This document shows positions 1 to 42,500 of a DNA stretch of 42,500 bases, in pieces. The notes under the pieces were generated by a model. It made no database searches and was not told where the DNA came from. It saw only the letters and a program-made list of their open reading frames with translations. The stretch is taken from the IMG/VR virus record IMGVR_UViG_3300010400_000013, positions 1 to 42,500 of that record. The stretch is one strand, 5' to 3'. The position numbers and the translations under genes were made by a program. Origin of the DNA: a virus. Numbering within the stretch: position 1 is the first letter of the stretch; each line of letters opens with the position of its first letter.

Positions 1-123
1 CTGACACGCACCCCTGCCGCAAACGATGTCAGGGCGCAACTGCCCACCATGATCGATACTCAAAAAGAATCGTCACGGCAGCAGGCCTTCATTGATGCGC
101 AGCTCAAGCGGAGCGAGGGCCTC
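1..123. repeat. Terminal direct repeat, left copy
   Basis: These 123 bases are identical to 42378-42500. The tape-measure reading frame continues exactly through the overlap, so the repeat shows the contig closes into a circle of 42,377 bp. It may be an assembly overlap or true terminal redundancy; the sequence alone cannot separate these. Confidence 0.95.
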
Positions 124-5334: not shown

Positions 5335-5547
5335 ATGGTCTGCCTGCGTTGTGACGGCTTCATCTGCTCCGAGCGCTTGAATAAATATGGGAAGTGGTGT
5401 TGGCGCTGCGTCAACTGTGGCGACCGCGTCGATGCCGTGATTCTGAGGCACCGAGCTGAACAGGAAGCCGAGGCAGCGGCCAGACGCATTGATCAGGATC
5501 AGGATCTGAAGGAATGGGCGAACTGGTTTGCGAGGGTGCCTGCCTAG
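5335..5547 (+). CDS. Small zinc-ribbon protein
   Basis: A 70-residue protein with CLRC near the N-terminus and a WRCVNCG knuckle about 18 residues later, forming a four-Cys zinc ribbon. A DAVILRHR helix and a charged tail follow. The WRCxxCGxxxDxVI pattern resembles small proteins I recall from Nitrospira genomes; this is memory, not a search. It starts directly after the lipoprotein stop. Its TAG shares a CTAG palindrome with the stop of the convergent minus-strand gene. Confidence 0.6.
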   Translation: MVCLRCDGFICSERLNKYGKWCWRCVNCGDRVDAVILRHRAEQEAEAAARRIDQDQDLKEWANWFARVPA

Positions 5548-6161
5548 CGAGCTAGCCGTCGTCGTACCGCGATCATCACTCCAAGACCGACAGCCACTAA
5601 GGCGAGTGAACTGGTCTCCGGCACATTCGCGCTCGGCTGGCTCACCGATCCACTCAATGCTCCACTGGTAAAGATCGTCACTGGCACACAGATCGGGCAG
5701 GGCACGCGATAGACGGCCTCTCGCAGGGTGCCCCATTCACTGATATCAGCGGGCGGGGTGACAAGTGGTGTCGGATCAGTCATCTGAAACGTGATCTGCA
5801 TCAGCAAATTCTGATCGTTCTTGAAAATGAGATTCGTAGTATCACCAGCAGAAAACACGCAATTCCCCAAGCAGAACTCAGCGGTATTGCCAGCCAGCCC
5901 ACTCGCAAAGGTCGTGGAGGGCAGGACGAACTCGGTTGCCGTCACGGTGAAATCCCATGCAGTCAAGGCATAGATGGCATTATTGGCCAGCCCGCGCACA
6001 TTCAAGGCGGTGGGGCCTTCCGCATTGTCATAAGTAAAGGACCCTGACGCAATCCCACTGCCGCCAAAGCTGCCGATAAACTCTAGACTGACCGGCGTAG
6101 CGAGCGCAAATGCCGGTAGACTCAGCCAGACGAAGAGCACGAAGACTCCAAGCGCTTTCAT
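5544..6161 (-). CDS. Secreted protein with PEP-CTERM-like sorting signal
   Basis: A 205-residue protein. The start is fixed by a strong ribosome binding site (GGAGGTGG) just upstream on the minus strand; longer versions of the frame have none. It has an N-terminal signal peptide (hydrophobic core, then LPAFALA). The body is a beta-rich domain with Cys pairs (CLGNC, CPIC). The C-terminus is VPET, a hydrophobic helix, then RRR, which is the layout of PEP-CTERM signals cut by exosortase (canonical VPEP). The protein is thus expected at the surface or in the matrix of the lysogen. It is a probable moron gene in the lysogeny block. Confidence 0.75.
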   Translation of the reverse strand: MKALGVFVLFVWLSLPAFALATPVSLEFIGSFGGSGIASGSFTYDNAEGPTALNVRGLANNAIYALTAWDFTVTATEFVLPSTTFASGLAGNTAEFCLGNCVFSAGDTTNLIFKNDQNLLMQITFQMTDPTPLVTPPADISEWGTLREAVYRVPCPICVPVTIFTSGALSGSVSQPSANVPETSSLALVAVGLGVMIAVRRRLAR

Positions 6162-6222
6162 CGTTCCACCTCCCTCCATGCATGGACTGCCATCGTCGGA
6201 GTCTGTCAATCAATTTGCAACC

Positions 6223-6609
6223 CTACGGAAGAGGGGGTCGCTTCACAATCTCTCGCGTCGTCCAATCCCCCAGCCGCCAGACCGACTCATTTCTGACAAG
6301 GAATGTAAAGGGTTTTTCGCCGGCATAGCCGCCCATGCGATTCTTCGCATTGATCCTCACATTGACGAGATAGCCGAATTGAGGAGCCTGGAAGTCACCG
6401 TTGATATAAGCGTAGCCCCTGGTGGGTTCACCGAGATAACGGTAGCGTGCTGATTCAGGATCATAGAAAAGCGGGAACATATGCGCCTGAATGTGCTCTT
6501 TATAGGCTGGACTGAGCTGCCCATACTCAGCATGGGATATCTGTTCAGGTGTGGGGATGGTGGCACAGGCGCTCAGTAGCAGCATGGCCACGGCGAGACT
6601 CCATTTCAT
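6223..6609 (-). CDS. Lipoprotein, unknown function
   Basis: A 128-residue protein with a lipobox (LLLSAC) after a short hydrophobic signal, preceded by GAGGAGGG. The mature part includes DPESARYRYLG, a YGYLVNVRINAKNR..GGY motif and a terminal Pro-rich end. I recall this pattern from small lipoproteins found in bacteria and prophages, with no defined function. It is co-oriented with the integrase and the PEP-CTERM gene, so it may be expressed in the lysogen. A superinfection-exclusion or envelope role is possible but unproven. Confidence 0.65.
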   Translation of the reverse strand: MKWSLAVAMLLLSACATIPTPEQISHAEYGQLSPAYKEHIQAHMFPLFYDPESARYRYLGEPTRGYAYINGDFQAPQFGYLVNVRINAKNRMGGYAGEKPFTFLVRNESVWRLGDWTTREIVKRPPLP

Positions 6610-6623
6610 GATGCCCTCCTCGG

Positions 6624-7565
6624 TTAATCCTTATTGGGCGGCAATCCTAACATTCGCCTACTGTTCAGTTCCAAGGCTCGACTGACGGGCGACACATTTA
6701 ATCGCGCATAGATCGCCGTATGCTGGAGCCCACTATGGTTGAGCACGTTCCCGATGATCGCCAGATTTTCCCCATGACAAGCCAGCCAGCTCGCGCACGT
6801 CCGTCGCAAATCGTGAATTGTGAGATCGGGCATCCCTGCTAGCGAACGGATCAGATCCCATCGCTCAAAGGCTAATGAGGTGGACCAATGCCCGCGTTCG
6901 GTCGCAAAGACAAAGGCATTCGTGCGTGGTAAGCCATTAAGCCGTTGCATGAGGATGAATGGAATGGGCACCGTTTGAGCGCGATCCGTCTTGGTATGGG
7001 GTTTATGCCAGAGTCCCCCGTCAATGTCGAGATCGCACCAGCGCATCGTCAAACCTTCAGTCCGCCGACAGCCCACTAACAGGCAGAGGAGGAAATAGCA
7101 TTGAGTCGGCTCATCCTGTTCACGAATCGCGTCCATCAACTTCGGCATTTCATGCGGCTGGACGAAGCGTTTCCGGGAGTGCTCCCGATATTTCTTGATG
7201 CGCGCTGCCGGGTTCTCGCCAATATAGATGCGCCAGTCGTGAGCTTTGCCAAACATCGTCCGCAGGATGGAGAGGCACTTATTCCCCATGCTTGGTGAGG
7301 TCTGACCGATCTGATGGAACCATTCTTCGATTTGAATCGGGGTGAGCTGATCGAGTCGGCTGGCCATCAAGGGGCCGAAATATCGGCGGATCGTCCCGGC
7401 CATTTCGCGGCCAATGGACAATTGCGCCACATGATTCCTGAGATAGAGCGGAATGAACGCCTCCATGTCAGCCTCCGAATCAGGAAGGAGGCTAAGTGAT
7501 TCGGCTGTGGCTTGGCTACCCCTCGCGAGGGTTACAGAGTCATGCGTAATCTGTATGCCTGTCAT
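6624..7565 (-). CDS. int: Tyrosine recombinase integrase
   Basis: A 313-residue site-specific recombinase that would integrate and excise the phage genome. The core-binding domain spans about residues 35-125 and the catalytic domain about 140-300. Catalytic residues are visible: Arg167 (GCRRTEG), Lys192 (HTKTD), His251 and Arg254 (HDLRRT), His277 (LNHSG) and Tyr286 (IYARL). It has no obvious long arm-binding domain. The ribosome binding site at the annotated start is weak, so a downstream start (such as the Met at residue 34) is possible. No attachment core could be recognised next to it. Confidence 0.93.
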   Translation of the reverse strand: MTGIQITHDSVTLARGSQATAESLSLLPDSEADMEAFIPLYLRNHVAQLSIGREMAGTIRRYFGPLMASRLDQLTPIQIEEWFHQIGQTSPSMGNKCLSILRTMFGKAHDWRIYIGENPAARIKKYREHSRKRFVQPHEMPKLMDAIREQDEPTQCYFLLCLLVGCRRTEGLTMRWCDLDIDGGLWHKPHTKTDRAQTVPIPFILMQRLNGLPRTNAFVFATERGHWSTSLAFERWDLIRSLAGMPDLTIHDLRRTCASWLACHGENLAIIGNVLNHSGLQHTAIYARLNVSPVSRALELNSRRMLGLPPNKD

Positions 7566-11138: not shown

Positions 11139-11435
11139 ATGTCAGTTGACACCGACCTTTCCTGTTTCGAGAAAGCGCGGGCGAGCGGCGAGCAAACTTT
11201 CAGCCTTCGCTCGCAGGACATTACCGCGCCGCTCGTGATCGACTTCTGGGTCCGCGTCCAGCAGAAGGTCCGCGAGCATGTGAAGGCGGGCCTCACCGCG
11301 GAGCAGGCCGTCAAGGCGGTACGCTCCTACTATTTCCTTGAGCCAGACGTCCACCTTGAAGATACCAAGCTCTCAGAGGCCTGTCGGATCGCTGGCGCGA
11401 TGGAAGAATGGCCGAGTAGGAAAATTGCGGATTAA
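11139..11435 (+). CDS. Small protein, unknown
   Basis: A 98-residue protein. The start is the second ATG, because AAGGAGG (11127-11133) lies right before it; the upstream in-frame ATG at 11124 overlaps that site. It holds an FWVRVQQKVREHVKAGLTAEQAVKAVRSYYF helical region. It sits between the recombination pair and a nuclease-like gene. No family was recognised. Confidence 0.6.
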   Translation: MSVDTDLSCFEKARASGEQTFSLRSQDITAPLVIDFWVRVQQKVREHVKAGLTAEQAVKAVRSYYFLEPDVHLEDTKLSEACRIAGAMEEWPSRKIAD

Positions 11436-30469: not shown

Positions 30470-30735
30470 CACCGACCTCCAAATTTGATCCAAGCACCGA
30501 ATCCGATCTGGCCGGCTATCGATATTACTATGGATTAGCCCCTAGCACCTATACCACCTTCATCGAGGTGCTCGTGCCTTGTCGCCCGTTCTTTCGTTGG
30601 TCCTGTCCGCCCTTGGTCAAAAACGTCACGAACTATTTTCGCATCACCGCCTTCGATGACAGTAACAATGAAACGCTCTTTGCAGACACGCCGGAATTCA
30701 GCCATGTGCCGAGCGGAGGATTGATCCTGAAATGA
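30460..30735 (+). CDS. Fibronectin-III-like protein, no signal peptide
   Basis: A 91-residue protein. DLAGYRYYYGLAP and ITAFDDSNNETLF are the edge motifs of a bacterial fibronectin type III domain. The same two motifs recur, slightly changed, in the next protein, so the two are related by duplication. It lacks a signal peptide, unlike its neighbours. Confidence 0.6.
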   Translation: MSLTPTSKFDPSTESDLAGYRYYYGLAPSTYTTFIEVLVPCRPFFRWSCPPLVKNVTNYFRITAFDDSNNETLFADTPEFSHVPSGGLILK

Positions 30736-31373
30736 AGATCATCCTCTCAACATTGTGTAGTTGGTTAATGTTTCTCGGTGTCGCGTTTGCCGCGAGCGTG
30801 ACCATTGCCCCGACGACATTGAACATTGCTATCCCTACTGGGCAGACTTCTGCTTGGGGTTCCATTATCTCAACGAACACGGGCACTACGAGTGTGACGT
30901 TGACCTGGGCAGATTCCATCGACTGCTTGCGGGACTTGACGCCGTTGATGCGCACCCTCTCCGCAGGGGCCTCGACGACCTGGACGATTCGTGGCATATG
31001 CGTCCAGTCTGGCAACGCGTTTCTAGCTGGATCGGGCATCTCCATCACCATTCCCGTGTCGATTATGCAAGGTGCAGCGGCGATCCCAGGTCCACCGGGG
31101 ACTCCGATTGTGACCATGAAACCCTCGCCGATCCTTGGGAGTGCGTTGTTGGGATGGGATGCGAATAAGGAAATGGATCTTGCGGGATATCGCGTCTACA
31201 TGGGGACCGCACCACGCACCTATAACTCGATCTCAGTCTTGCCGAAAGATCGCATCACGGCGACGGCGAATAATTTACAGCCAGGCAAGACATACTTTTT
31301 TGCCGTGACGGCCTTCGATTCGTCGAACAATGAAAGCCCATTTTCAACAGAACTCAGCAAAACTGTTCCGTGA
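30732..31373 (+). CDS. Secreted protein with fibronectin-III domain
   Basis: A 213-residue protein. The N-terminus is a clear signal peptide (MKIILSTLCSWLMFLGVAFA, cut before AS). Residues ~25-115 form a beta-sandwich with two Cys (IDCLRDL, GICVQSG). A Pro-rich linker (PGPPGTP) leads to a C-terminal fibronectin-III domain (DLAGYRVYMGTAPRTYN...VTAFDSSNNESPFS). A secreted or surface-attached role is expected. The ATG overlaps the previous gene. Confidence 0.7.
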   Translation: MKIILSTLCSWLMFLGVAFAASVTIAPTTLNIAIPTGQTSAWGSIISTNTGTTSVTLTWADSIDCLRDLTPLMRTLSAGASTTWTIRGICVQSGNAFLAGSGISITIPVSIMQGAAAIPGPPGTPIVTMKPSPILGSALLGWDANKEMDLAGYRVYMGTAPRTYNSISVLPKDRITATANNLQPGKTYFFAVTAFDSSNNESPFSTELSKTVP

Positions 31374-31383
31374 AAGGAATCTG

Positions 31384-31758
31384 ATGATGAAAACGATCTG
31401 GAGCCTCATCCTCGTGATCGCGTTGACGATGTTCACCGTAGGGCCATCCATGGCGGTGACACAGGATGCGACGGTCGCCTGGACCGCGCCGACTCTGAAT
31501 CCGTCGAGTGTCACGGGCTATAAGATTGAACGATGTCAAGGGGCAGGCTGCACGGCCTTTCTGCCGCTGGCTACCGTGAATGCAACAACGCTGACCTATC
31601 TGGACGCGAATCTCGCACAAGGAACCGTCTTCTGTTATCGAGAAATCGCGACCAGTGCTGCGGGTGATGGGCAGCCCAGCCCTCCAGGATGTAGCAGTAC
31701 AGCAGGAGTACCCGGTGCGCCTGGACAGCCGACAATTACAATTACAATTAAGCCGTAG
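31384..31758 (+). CDS. Secreted fibronectin-III-like protein
   Basis: A protein of about 124 residues with two adjacent ATGs and GAAAGGA upstream. It has a signal peptide (SLILVIALTMFTVGPSMA) and then a fibronectin-like domain (VAWTAPTLNPSSVTGYKIERCQG..FCYREIATSAAG). Several Cys suggest disulfides. It ends in a Thr/Ile/Lys tail (PTITITIKP). Confidence 0.65.
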   Translation: MMKTIWSLILVIALTMFTVGPSMAVTQDATVAWTAPTLNPSSVTGYKIERCQGAGCTAFLPLATVNATTLTYLDANLAQGTVFCYREIATSAAGDGQPSPPGCSSTAGVPGAPGQPTITITIKP

Positions 31759-31766
31759 GGCGAGCG

Positions 31767-33698
31767 ATGAAGCAAACAGGTCTCATGATTGCACTCTTGG
31801 CGTTGGTATTCTGGTCGAGTTCCGTCCAGGCCCAGCTCTGGTCTGGGCAACTTCCAGCCAATCGGGCGACTGATTGGTCATCTCCAGGTGCGACGATTGT
31901 GAATCGCACCACCATCTGCGCGACGATTGCGGCCTATGGGACGAGTGGTTCTCCTGGCAATCCTTCGACTATCACGAACGCGATCAATGCCTGCACCAAT
32001 GGAGTCGTGAAGCTCGGAACAGGGACGTTTCATCTGTCGAACGGCATCACCTTTGCTGATAAAAACAATATCACCCTGCGCGGAGATGGCCCACATCTTA
32101 CTCGCATCATTTTCTACAACTACCAGGGATGCAATGGTTTCACGAAAGACCTCTCGAATCGAATTTGCATCCGTACCTCGTCAAACTGGGCACCCAATCC
32201 AAGCCAGGGCACACTGAGCGGAAATTTTGCAGCAGGGTCCAACTCCCTTACGTTGACCACAACCGCTACGCCAGCGGGCGCATTGGCGGTTGGTCGCATC
32301 ATGGTGATTTCACAGGATAATGATACATCAGACAACGGCTACGTATTTGTCTGCCAGGGCACTGCGAATCCTCCAGCCGGATGTTCCTATTCTGAAGGTG
32401 GAGGGCAGCACGCCTTTCCTGGTTCTGGAGGAACCCAGCAGGCAGTTGTGGTCACAAATATAGTTGGTACTACTGTCACGTTCAGTCCGGCATTAAAAGG
32501 CCCACATTGGACTTCGAGCAAAAATCCGAAGGCATTTTGGGGTGGCGCTGAAGCCGATGGCATTGGAATAGAGGATCTTGCTATTGATGGGTCAATCGGA
32601 AACGACTCCAATGGCTCATCGAACATTGCCTACTATGGGTCAAAAAATTTCTGGCTTTTGCGCGTCGAATCCTATGGAGCTGGTTATTATCACTTGAGTT
32701 GCCGCTTCTGTGTGAACGGCACTATCCGTGATAGCTATTTCGAGAGGAACATGACACTCCAGGCTCCTGCAAGCTATCAAGAAAACTATGGGATTGGATC
32801 AATCGTCTCGACCAATCTGTTGATCGAAAACAACATCTTTCATAAGAGCGCAGCGTCCGTGTCGATCAATGGCTCGTGCACGGGATGCGTGATCGGTTAT
32901 AACTACAGTTTTGAAAGTAACTTCTTTACTGACGCGGTGAGCGCCGGGTATTGGTCGCATGAGGTTGGCAATCATCTCAATCTCCTTGAGGGCAATGATT
33001 TTCCCGGTATCTTTTCAGATGGGATTCATGGGTCAGCGCAATTTCATACCTTTTTCAGAAACTATAGTGCGGGATTCGAGGCCATTAAAACTGGGGATAA
33101 TAACTCCTATGCCGTGAGTGTCAGTGGATATAACCGTATGTTCAATGTCATTGGCAATGTGCTTGGGAAGAATGGTTATGCAACAACCTATGAGAGTGTT
33201 GGTGGTCAGAAGATAATTTTCAATCTTGGACCTGCTGGCGTCAACGATCCGCGTGTAGCGATTACGATGATGCGGTGGGGCAATTACGATACCGTCACTG
33301 ATACAAGTCGGTTTCTTGTGAGTGAGGTGCCAACTGGGTTAGCACAGTTTGCCGTGACGCTTCCAGCTAGCACTACTCTTCCAAGTTCCTATTACCTTTC
33401 TAGCAGACCATCATGGTTTGGGTATAATGGCATAGCCGTACCATTCCCCCCGATCGGTCCTGACGTGATTGGTGGGTTTGATGCCACGCTTGGCAGTCAT
33501 GTGCATAAGATTCCGGCACGTCTCTGCTATGAAAACACTGCCAAAGATGGCGCGGGGAGGCTGACCGCCTTCAATCCTGCCCTCTGCTATGCGTCGGTGG
33601 GCGGGGGCGATACGACGCCCCCAGCGGCCCCTCAGAATCCCTATATCGTTCGTCCGCCATTACCTCAAGGCTTGCGCCTAGTCAGAGAGGAACAATAA
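31767..33698 (+). CDS. Secreted right-handed beta-helix protein (pectate-lyase-like)
   Basis: A 643-residue protein. The N-terminal signal peptide (LMIALLALVFWSSSVQAQ) is followed by a parallel beta-helix of repeating strands with Asn ladders (FADKNNITLRGDG, LLIENNIFHKS, NLLEGNDF, NRMFNVIGNVLG), as in pectate-lyase-like and tailspike-type depolymerases. It has no PEP-CTERM end; the C-terminus is Pro-rich. With a signal peptide it would leave the cell by the Sec route rather than be assembled in the virion. Polysaccharide degradation or modification is the likely role, but no catalytic residues can be assigned by eye. Confidence 0.7.
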   Translation: MKQTGLMIALLALVFWSSSVQAQLWSGQLPANRATDWSSPGATIVNRTTICATIAAYGTSGSPGNPSTITNAINACTNGVVKLGTGTFHLSNGITFADKNNITLRGDGPHLTRIIFYNYQGCNGFTKDLSNRICIRTSSNWAPNPSQGTLSGNFAAGSNSLTLTTTATPAGALAVGRIMVISQDNDTSDNGYVFVCQGTANPPAGCSYSEGGGQHAFPGSGGTQQAVVVTNIVGTTVTFSPALKGPHWTSSKNPKAFWGGAEADGIGIEDLAIDGSIGNDSNGSSNIAYYGSKNFWLLRVESYGAGYYHLSCRFCVNGTIRDSYFERNMTLQAPASYQENYGIGSIVSTNLLIENNIFHKSAASVSINGSCTGCVIGYNYSFESNFFTDAVSAGYWSHEVGNHLNLLEGNDFPGIFSDGIHGSAQFHTFFRNYSAGFEAIKTGDNNSYAVSVSGYNRMFNVIGNVLGKNGYATTYESVGGQKIIFNLGPAGVNDPRVAITMMRWGNYDTVTDTSRFLVSEVPTGLAQFAVTLPASTTLPSSYYLSSRPSWFGYNGIAVPFPPIGPDVIGGFDATLGSHVHKIPARLCYENTAKDGAGRLTAFNPALCYASVGGGDTTPPAAPQNPYIVRPPLPQGLRLVREEQ

Positions 33699-41434: not shown

Positions 41435-42500
41435 TATTGGATCGCTGATTATAAAAATCGGGGCCGATGCGAGCGGGCTACAAAAGGCCTTCTCGGATCT
41501 CGGCGGCTCGGCCAAACAGTTTCAGCGTGGCGTCGAGCAGATCGGGAAGTTTGCGGCGACAGCCTTTCTCGGGGCGGCCACGGCTGCCGTGGCCATGACC
41601 ATTGCAGCCGGAAAACAGGCTGAACAGCTTGATCAGCTCTCACAGGTGACTGGCATTAATACCGATAAGCTCCAAGAATATGATGTCGCACTGAATCGTG
41701 CTGGTCTGGATGGCAACGATCTGGCTATGGTCATGAAAGGCGTCTCGCAGAGCTTAGATCAAGCTCGGCAAGGGACTGGAACAGCAGGGGATCGCTTCAG
41801 GCAGCTTGGCATCGATATCCGCACCGTTACCAGCACGGATGATCTCATTCGGAAGATTGTCACGACTTCTGCGAATTTCGCCAATGGATTACAGAAATCC
41901 GCGCTGATGTCTGATCTGCTCGGGAAAAGCTGGCAGACAATCATTAGGACATTTCCATCTGGTGCGAAGGCCTTTGATGACATGGCTGCCGCATCGAGAA
42001 GCCTTGGGGAAACCCTGTCGACCAATCAGATTGCGGTACTCGCGAAAATGGATGACAGCATTGATGACCTCATGACGGCAACGAAGCGCTTTGGTCAACA
42101 GCTCGGTGTCTTTCTCGCGCCCTCAATTGAAATGATTACGCGGCTCCTCACGACCATGCTCTCGTTCGGCTCGCGAGCATTCGTAGCAATCGGAGTGGAG
42201 GCGGATGTCTTTGCAACGAAACTCTTGCATATGGGTTTGCAGATCCAGGAGCTACTCGGGACGGTATTCTCTGGAAATATCTTTTCTGGAGATGCATGGA
42301 AGCAGACATTGGCCAATATCAAATTCATCGGGGAGGAATCAGACAAGCAAATTGCCAAGATTCGCGCTGCCGGAGCACTGACACGCACCCCTGCCGCAAA
42401 CGATGTCAGGGCGCAACTGCCCACCATGATCGATACTCAAAAAGAATCGTCACGGCAGCAGGCCTTCATTGATGCGCAGCTCAAGCGGAGCGAGGGCCTC
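41427..42500 (+). CDS. Tail tape measure protein, N-terminal part
   Basis: The ATG lies inside the end of the chaperone frame. The first 358 residues seen here open with ADIGSLIIKIGADASGLQKAF, typical of tape measure proteins. A helical Ala-rich segment (FAATAFLGAATAAVAMTIAAG) and a TGINTDKLQEYDVALNRAG stretch follow. It runs to the end of the window; through the circular overlap it continues at position 1 and ends at 1191, giving about 713 residues. Confidence 0.9.
   Translation, partial: MADIGSLIIKIGADASGLQKAFSDLGGSAKQFQRGVEQIGKFAATAFLGAATAAVAMTIAAGKQAEQLDQLSQVTGINTDKLQEYDVALNRAGLDGNDLAMVMKGVSQSLDQARQGTGTAGDRFRQLGIDIRTVTSTDDLIRKIVTTSANFANGLQKSALMSDLLGKSWQTIIRTFPSGAKAFDDMAAASRSLGETLSTNQIAVLAKMDDSIDDLMTATKRFGQQLGVFLAPSIEMITRLLTTMLSFGSRAFVAIGVEADVFATKLLHMGLQIQELLGTVFSGNIFSGDAWKQTLANIKFIGEESDKQIAKIRAAGALTRTPAANDVRAQLPTMIDTQKESSRQQAFIDAQLKRSEGL
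42378..42500. repeat. Terminal direct repeat, right copy
   Basis: This copy is identical to 1-123. Base 42378 equals base 1, so 42377 is the last unique base of the circle. Confidence 0.95.

What the first reader, a model, noticed from the sequence alone, without database searches (positions are those of the whole stretch)
5544..6161. Phage gene for a PEP-CTERM-like, exosortase-sorted surface protein
The protein has a signal peptide and a VPET-hydrophobic helix-RRR C-terminus. It sits in the minus-strand block with the integrase, so it could be made by the lysogen and change the host's surface or biofilm matrix. Phage-carried exosortase substrates are rarely discussed.
Basis: partly seen in the sequence, partly recalled or inferred. 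Interest (0 to 1): 0.7.

Follow-up and report, generated by a model that had tools for sequence, protein, structure and literature searches.

The report
Phage gene for exosortase-tagged surface protein
A temperate phage carries a gene for a secreted protein whose tail looks like the tag that bacteria use to sort proteins to the cell surface, and many other phages turn out to carry genes with such tags too, none of those checked bringing the known enzyme that reads the tag.

Summary
The window is a complete phage record (123-bp terminal repeat). Bases 5544-6161 (minus strand) encode 205 aa with a signal peptide and a C-terminal VPET-helix-RRR tail. The tail passes the curated PEP-CTERM model narrowly (TIGR02595, 16.9 bits against a cut-off of 16; 19.2 bits). 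The normal P-E-P is P-E-T here. Fourteen control genomes and 55 related phage records score none over the cut-off. The gene follows the integrase and a lipoprotein gene. In the one relative with that integrase the slot is empty, so it looks like a cargo gene. No homologue of the protein body was found in the viral, phage or genome collections. The host is unassigned, so exosortase in the host is untested. The nearest cellular terminase lies in a Woeseiaceae MAG that has exosortase.

The wider result: one exact 9-residue motif found 37 other viral records with true PEP-CTERM tails. None of 38, the window included, encodes an exosortase. Only 4 of 38 have a tyrosine integrase. No paper seen describes this.

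The parts
5544..6161 (-). gene for the 205-aa secreted PEP-CTERM-like protein
   Evidence: open frame, RBS, phage-like codon usage; TIGR02595 over cut-off
6099..6161 (-). signal peptide, residues 1-21, predicted cut ALA|TP
   Evidence: hydropathy; AXA site read by eye
5550..5624 (-). PEP-CTERM-like tail: VPET, hydrophobic helix, RRRLAR (residues 180-204; model match 180-202)
   Evidence: TIGR02595 match 5556-5624 and residues 180-202; hydropathy
6162..6177 (-). Shine-Dalgarno-like sequence GGAGGGAGGTGG before the ATG
   Evidence: sequence
6223..6609 (-). small lipoprotein (lipobox LLLSAC) gene upstream of the tagged gene
   Evidence: phrog_2320, E 8.8e-18; 53-55% identical in relative L002
6624..7565 (-). 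tyrosine integrase gene, first of the three minus-strand genes
   Evidence: phrog_1, E 2.8e-45; PF00589 77 bits
5335..5547 (+). last gene of the convergent plus-strand gene group; its stop overlaps the tagged gene's stop by 4 bases
   Evidence: ORF list, sequence
1..123 (+). direct terminal repeat (same 123 bases at 42378-42500): record is a complete circularly closed phage genome
   Evidence: exact match

Best explanation
The gene is a cargo ('moron') gene of a temperate phage. It most likely works as follows. Step 1 (inferred): in the lysogen it is transcribed with the minus-strand integrase-lipoprotein unit or from its own unseen promoter. Step 2 (sequence-based): the protein enters the periplasm by its signal peptide and stops with its C-terminal helix in the inner membrane, RRR on the cytoplasmic side. 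Step 3 (inferred from the tag model): the host's exosortase cuts at the VPET motif, removes the helix and passes the about 160-residue body on to the outer surface or the exopolysaccharide layer. Step 4 (speculative): there it changes the surface of the lysogen, for example receptor masking, superinfection exclusion or aggregation. The phage brings the substrate and borrows the host's sorting enzyme. It is PEP-CTERM-like rather than a textbook member, because the third residue of the tripeptide is Thr.
For: TIGR02595 over its curated cut-off, none in 14 controls or 55 related phage records. Tripartite tail and signal peptide. Coding gene with its own RBS and phage-like codon usage. Placement beside the integrase in a complete phage. 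The slot is empty in the relative L002, where the lipoprotein stop (11241) is followed by the next gene at 11253. Independent precedent: 37 of 37 other viral records with a VPEPAT tail also pass the model, and 0 of 38 records carry exosortase; phage head, packaging or tail genes lie within about 1-3 kb of such genes in L146, L139, L147, L148 and L137.
Against: P-E-T instead of the near-invariant P-E-P; the score is the lowest of the best matches in the 38 records (19.2 bits; the others 22-34). The host is unknown, so the needed enzyme is not shown. No homologues, so no conservation of the tail can be tested. No sigma-70-type promoter between the lipoprotein gene and this gene and no sigma-54 site. 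No expression data. The moron argument rests on one relative.
Confidence: 0.6

Rival explanations
1. A plain membrane-anchored exported protein: the tail is only an inner-membrane anchor, is never cut, and the resemblance to the sorting tag is weak convergence. It would act in the periplasm, for example in blocking DNA entry of other phages.
For: Thr in place of the third tripeptide residue; margin over the curated cut-off only 0.9 bits; PF07589 below cut-off; neighbour gene is a lipoprotein, a kind that can also act in the envelope.
Against: The model still rings over cut-off while 14 controls and 55 related phage records do not; P-E, helix length and basic end are all in register.
Confidence: 0.27
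2. A true tag, but the gene is a passenger picked up from a host and has no role for the phage.
For: No homologue in other phages; slot empty in L002.
Against: Open, with strong RBS and codon usage like the phage's own genes, so it is not a fresh host fragment; tagged genes recur in about 11 unrelated protein groups of viral records, which speaks for selection.
Confidence: 0.1
3. The protein is a virion or lysis component rather than a surface protein.
For: The gene touches the convergent late gene group.
Against: Opposite strand to the late genes, next to the integrase; absent from the relative that has the same integrase and lipoprotein neighbours; no PHROG match.
Confidence: 0.03

Closest known systems
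PEP-CTERM/exosortase (EpsH) sorting system (TIGR02595, PF09721)
   Same: C-terminal motif, helix, basic end, N-terminal signal peptide, unconserved Ser/Thr-rich body
   Different: P-E-T not P-E-P; carried by a phage without an exosortase; no long upstream region with sigma-54 site
Floc-associated PEP-CTERM protein PepA (NF033554)
   Same: weak whole-protein similarity, 21.7 bits; the three group-1 proteins L152, L140 and L159 reach 35-48 bits
   Different: far below the curated 80 bits; not a member
Phage lysogenic-conversion ('moron') genes near the integrase
   Same: extra gene in a variable slot of a temperate phage, opposite to the late genes
   Different: product aimed at the host's exosortase route, a target not seen in the papers searched
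MYXO-CTERM/myxosortase and LPXTG/sortase tags
   Same: same tripartite logic of motif, helix, basic end
   Different: no invariant Cys or LPXTG; only seen in a search listing and abstract start for MYXO-CTERM (PMC11980579), LPXTG from recall

Membership tests
PEP-CTERM sorting-tag proteins (TIGR02595) | score over the curated cut-off of the model | tested here: met
   16.9 bits vs 16; 19.2 bits over cut-off
PEP-CTERM sorting-tag proteins (TIGR02595) | near-invariant tripeptide Pro-Glu-Pro (PMC1569441, passages seen) | tested here: not met
   tripeptide is Pro-Glu-Thr
PEP-CTERM sorting-tag proteins (TIGR02595) | hydrophobic helix then basic cluster at the very C-terminus | tested here: met
   hydropathy 2.2 over 184-198, RRRLAR end
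PEP-CTERM sorting-tag proteins (TIGR02595) | N-terminal signal peptide | tested here: met
   hydropathy and AXA site by eye; no dedicated predictor
PEP-CTERM sorting-tag proteins (TIGR02595) | exosortase in the same cell | tested here: inconclusive
   none in the phage; host unknown; present in the nearest terminase-bearing MAG and in 21 of the 60 genomes searched around it
PEP-CTERM sorting-tag proteins (TIGR02595) | sigma-54 site upstream (99 of 167 proteobacterial genes, PMC1569441; not defining) | tested here: not met
   two crude patterns, 600 bases upstream, none
Exosortase-dependent cleavage | tail removed by exosortase | not testable with these tools
   needs an experiment
Lysogenic-conversion (moron) gene | phage able to lysogenise | tested here: met
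   tyrosine integrase
Lysogenic-conversion (moron) gene | absent from close relatives at the same place | tested here: met
   absent in L002, the only relative with that integrase; n = 1
Lysogenic-conversion (moron) gene | expressed in the lysogen and changes the host | not testable with these tools
   no expression data

The most novel reading that the evidence does not exclude
Carrying secreted proteins tagged for the host's exosortase is a general phage strategy. Unrelated phages, many without a detectable tyrosine integrase and so perhaps virulent, supply only the tagged substrate and use the host's exosortase to place it on the surface or in the polysaccharide layer during infection or lysogeny. 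The window's protein is a divergent temperate-phage case.
Probability: 0.4. Interest if true: 0.75.

Novelty: new variant of a known kind. Interest (0 to 1): 0.5.

Why it matters
Exosortase substrates are tied to floc and biofilm formation in sludge and soil bacteria (abstract start of PMC9012009). If phages carry such substrates and lean on the host's enzyme, infection or lysogeny can directly edit the polysaccharide-associated surface, which is also the layer phages must cross. That would give a testable link between phages and aggregation, and a new class of phage surface genes that standard phage annotation misses: the window's protein has no PHROG match.

Tried and rejected
Homologues of the protein: none in viral contigs, phages (three Salinibacter phage matches, E 0.3, rejected as noise), genome contigs or 347 genomes of G001's phylum, Acidobacteriota; three of 369 genomes of G008's class, Gammaproteobacteria, gave E 6.5e-5 to 3.9e-4, one of them tail only, near what 369 searches would give. 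PDB sequences: none.

Host: no tRNA or tRNA-end signal; integrase in 369 genomes of G008's class at best 38% identical; best cellular terminase 61%. Nitrospirota could not be used as a centre. Host left unassigned.

Structure: AlphaFold2 of the window protein alone, mean pLDDT 43.7, unusable. Of the widespread group-1 phage proteins (alignment A4, 13 of its 19 members), pLDDT 64.2, a mostly beta body; Foldseek against PDB best E 0.36, nothing.

Tail-only tblastn in annotated phages: no match for the window tail or a generic tag; the method is too insensitive to mean absence.

A loose regular expression over 79 further viral loci gave 7 chance frames, none a real tag. Of the 44 stretches, 7 were dropped: 6 are inside a 676-678-aa ORF (L123, L126, L134, L138, L141, L150) and 1 lacks the tail (L156).

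The TIGR02595 search of relatives took 49 of the 80 portal-relative records (48, one), mostly the longest ones; the rest were not searched with the model.

Full report
What is there. The window is a virus record of 42,500 bases with a 123-base direct terminal repeat, so a complete phage genome. ORF 5544-6161 on the minus strand encodes 205 residues. It starts with a signal peptide (MKALGVFVLFVWLSLPAFALA|TP, cut site read by eye) and ends NVPETSSLALVAVGLGVMIAVRRRLAR. The ATG has GGAGGGAGGTGG just before it, and codon usage fits the phage's other genes.

Is the tag real? NCBIfam's PEP_CTERM model TIGR02595 gives 16.9 bits against a curated 16 over residues 180-202, and 19.2 bits in the six-frame search. 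The other NCBIfam matches are mostly to the same tail and all below their cut-offs. The Pfam model stays below its cut-off, as it does for most PEP-CTERM proteins according to PMC1569441 (passages read). None of 14 control genomes and none of 55 related phage records passes. The tripeptide is PET where PEP is near-invariant (PMC1569441), so I call it PEP-CTERM-like.

Where it sits. Three minus-strand genes follow each other: integrase 6624-7565 (phrog_1), lipoprotein 6223-6609 (phrog_2320) and this gene. Its stop overlaps by four bases the stop of the convergent plus-strand gene at 5335-5547. One viral contig, L002, has the same integrase (72%), the small regulators (81%) and the lipoprotein (53%). 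There the lipoprotein ends at 11241 and the next, convergent gene at 11253, with nothing between. A second search with both integrases found only L002 again. So the tagged gene occupies a slot that is empty in the one comparable relative.

Relatives and host. The body of the protein has no relative in viral contigs, annotated phages or genome contigs. The phage's terminase and portal have many relatives in viral contigs but no close provirus in the genome collection; the best is 61% in a Woeseiaceae MAG. Of the nine genomes that gave terminase matches, only that MAG passes the exosortase model (212 and 80 bits); one other, G009, is below cut-off. Among 60 genomes searched around it, itself included, 21 have exosortase. 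This is a weak hint, not a host assignment.

A wider pattern. To ask whether phages carry such tags at all, I scanned 2.9 million viral contigs for DNA encoding VPEPAT[LF]A[LF]. 44 stretches matched and 37 of them end an ORF with the full tag. All 37, and the window, pass TIGR02595 (38 of 38). The proteins fall into 13 groups by BLASTP, about 11 if two truncated copies are merged (L133 by its tail; L118 by 90% DNA identity over 4.6 kb to L147). The largest has 19 members. Neighbour genes were checked with PHROGs for six contigs: major head protein (L146), terminase and portal (L139, L147), portal (L148), tail protein (L137) and RecT-like protein (L142). Three of 17 long records have terminal repeats of 102-127 bases (L120, L160, L142). 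None of the 38 records has an exosortase, and only four have a tyrosine integrase: the window, L131, L142 and L153. Several records are short fragments, so absence is weak there. The tag of L131 lies at the very edge of its contig and could be host DNA; L143, L149 and L157 were not shown to carry phage genes.

How it most likely works. The phage supplies a secreted substrate and the host's exosortase cuts and releases it to the surface or polysaccharide layer. Export and the membrane-stop topology follow from sequence; the cutting and its effect are inferred. Unlike cellular PEP-CTERM genes, which often have long upstream regions with a sigma-54 site (PMC1569441), this gene has 61 bases to the previous gene and no such site, as expected of a phage-controlled gene.

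Literature. Searches for PEP-CTERM or exosortase with prophage, phage, bacteriophage, auxiliary metabolic gene, virome, lysogenic conversion, and phages plus viral genomes listed no paper about phage-borne PEP-CTERM genes. I read listings with abstract starts, and passages of PMC12642866, PMC4886054 and PMC1569441 only; the library lacks most subscription papers.

Verdict. Observation confirmed; interpretation partly supported. The gene alone is a modest, somewhat divergent case. The recurrence of exosortase tags in unrelated phages without the enzyme is the more interesting result.

Noticed in passing
window 30732-33698 (+): Three neighbouring genes in the late region, two with fn3-like domains and one long protein with relatives in L106/L107, begin with signal-peptide-like N-termini, odd for late phage genes; the long gene's codon usage is the least phage-like of those measured.
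   Followed up: partly
window 6223-6609 (-): Small lipoprotein with a conserved INAKNRMGGY core; relatives at 33-53% in otherwise different phage records L022, L023, L024 and in L002. Unknown function.
   Followed up: partly
L120, L139, L151, L155 (records G781, G796, G806, G810): These related phage records each carry a second, weaker PEP-CTERM tail (18.1 bits) besides the strong one, i.e. two tagged genes per phage.
   Followed up: partly
L119, L121, L122, L125, L127, L128, L132, L135, L136, L140, L142, L145, L146, L152, L154, L158-L161: A widespread family of phage PEP-CTERM proteins (about 200-224 aa, mostly beta in the model), near the head genes in L146 (also by eye in L136 and L154), weakly like flocculation protein PepA.
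   Followed up: partly
L123, L126, L134, L138, L141, L150: The peptide VPEPATFALAGW occurs inside a 676-678-aa ORF that continues with a P-loop-like sequence (ANGGVGKS); a false positive for the tag search.
   Followed up: no
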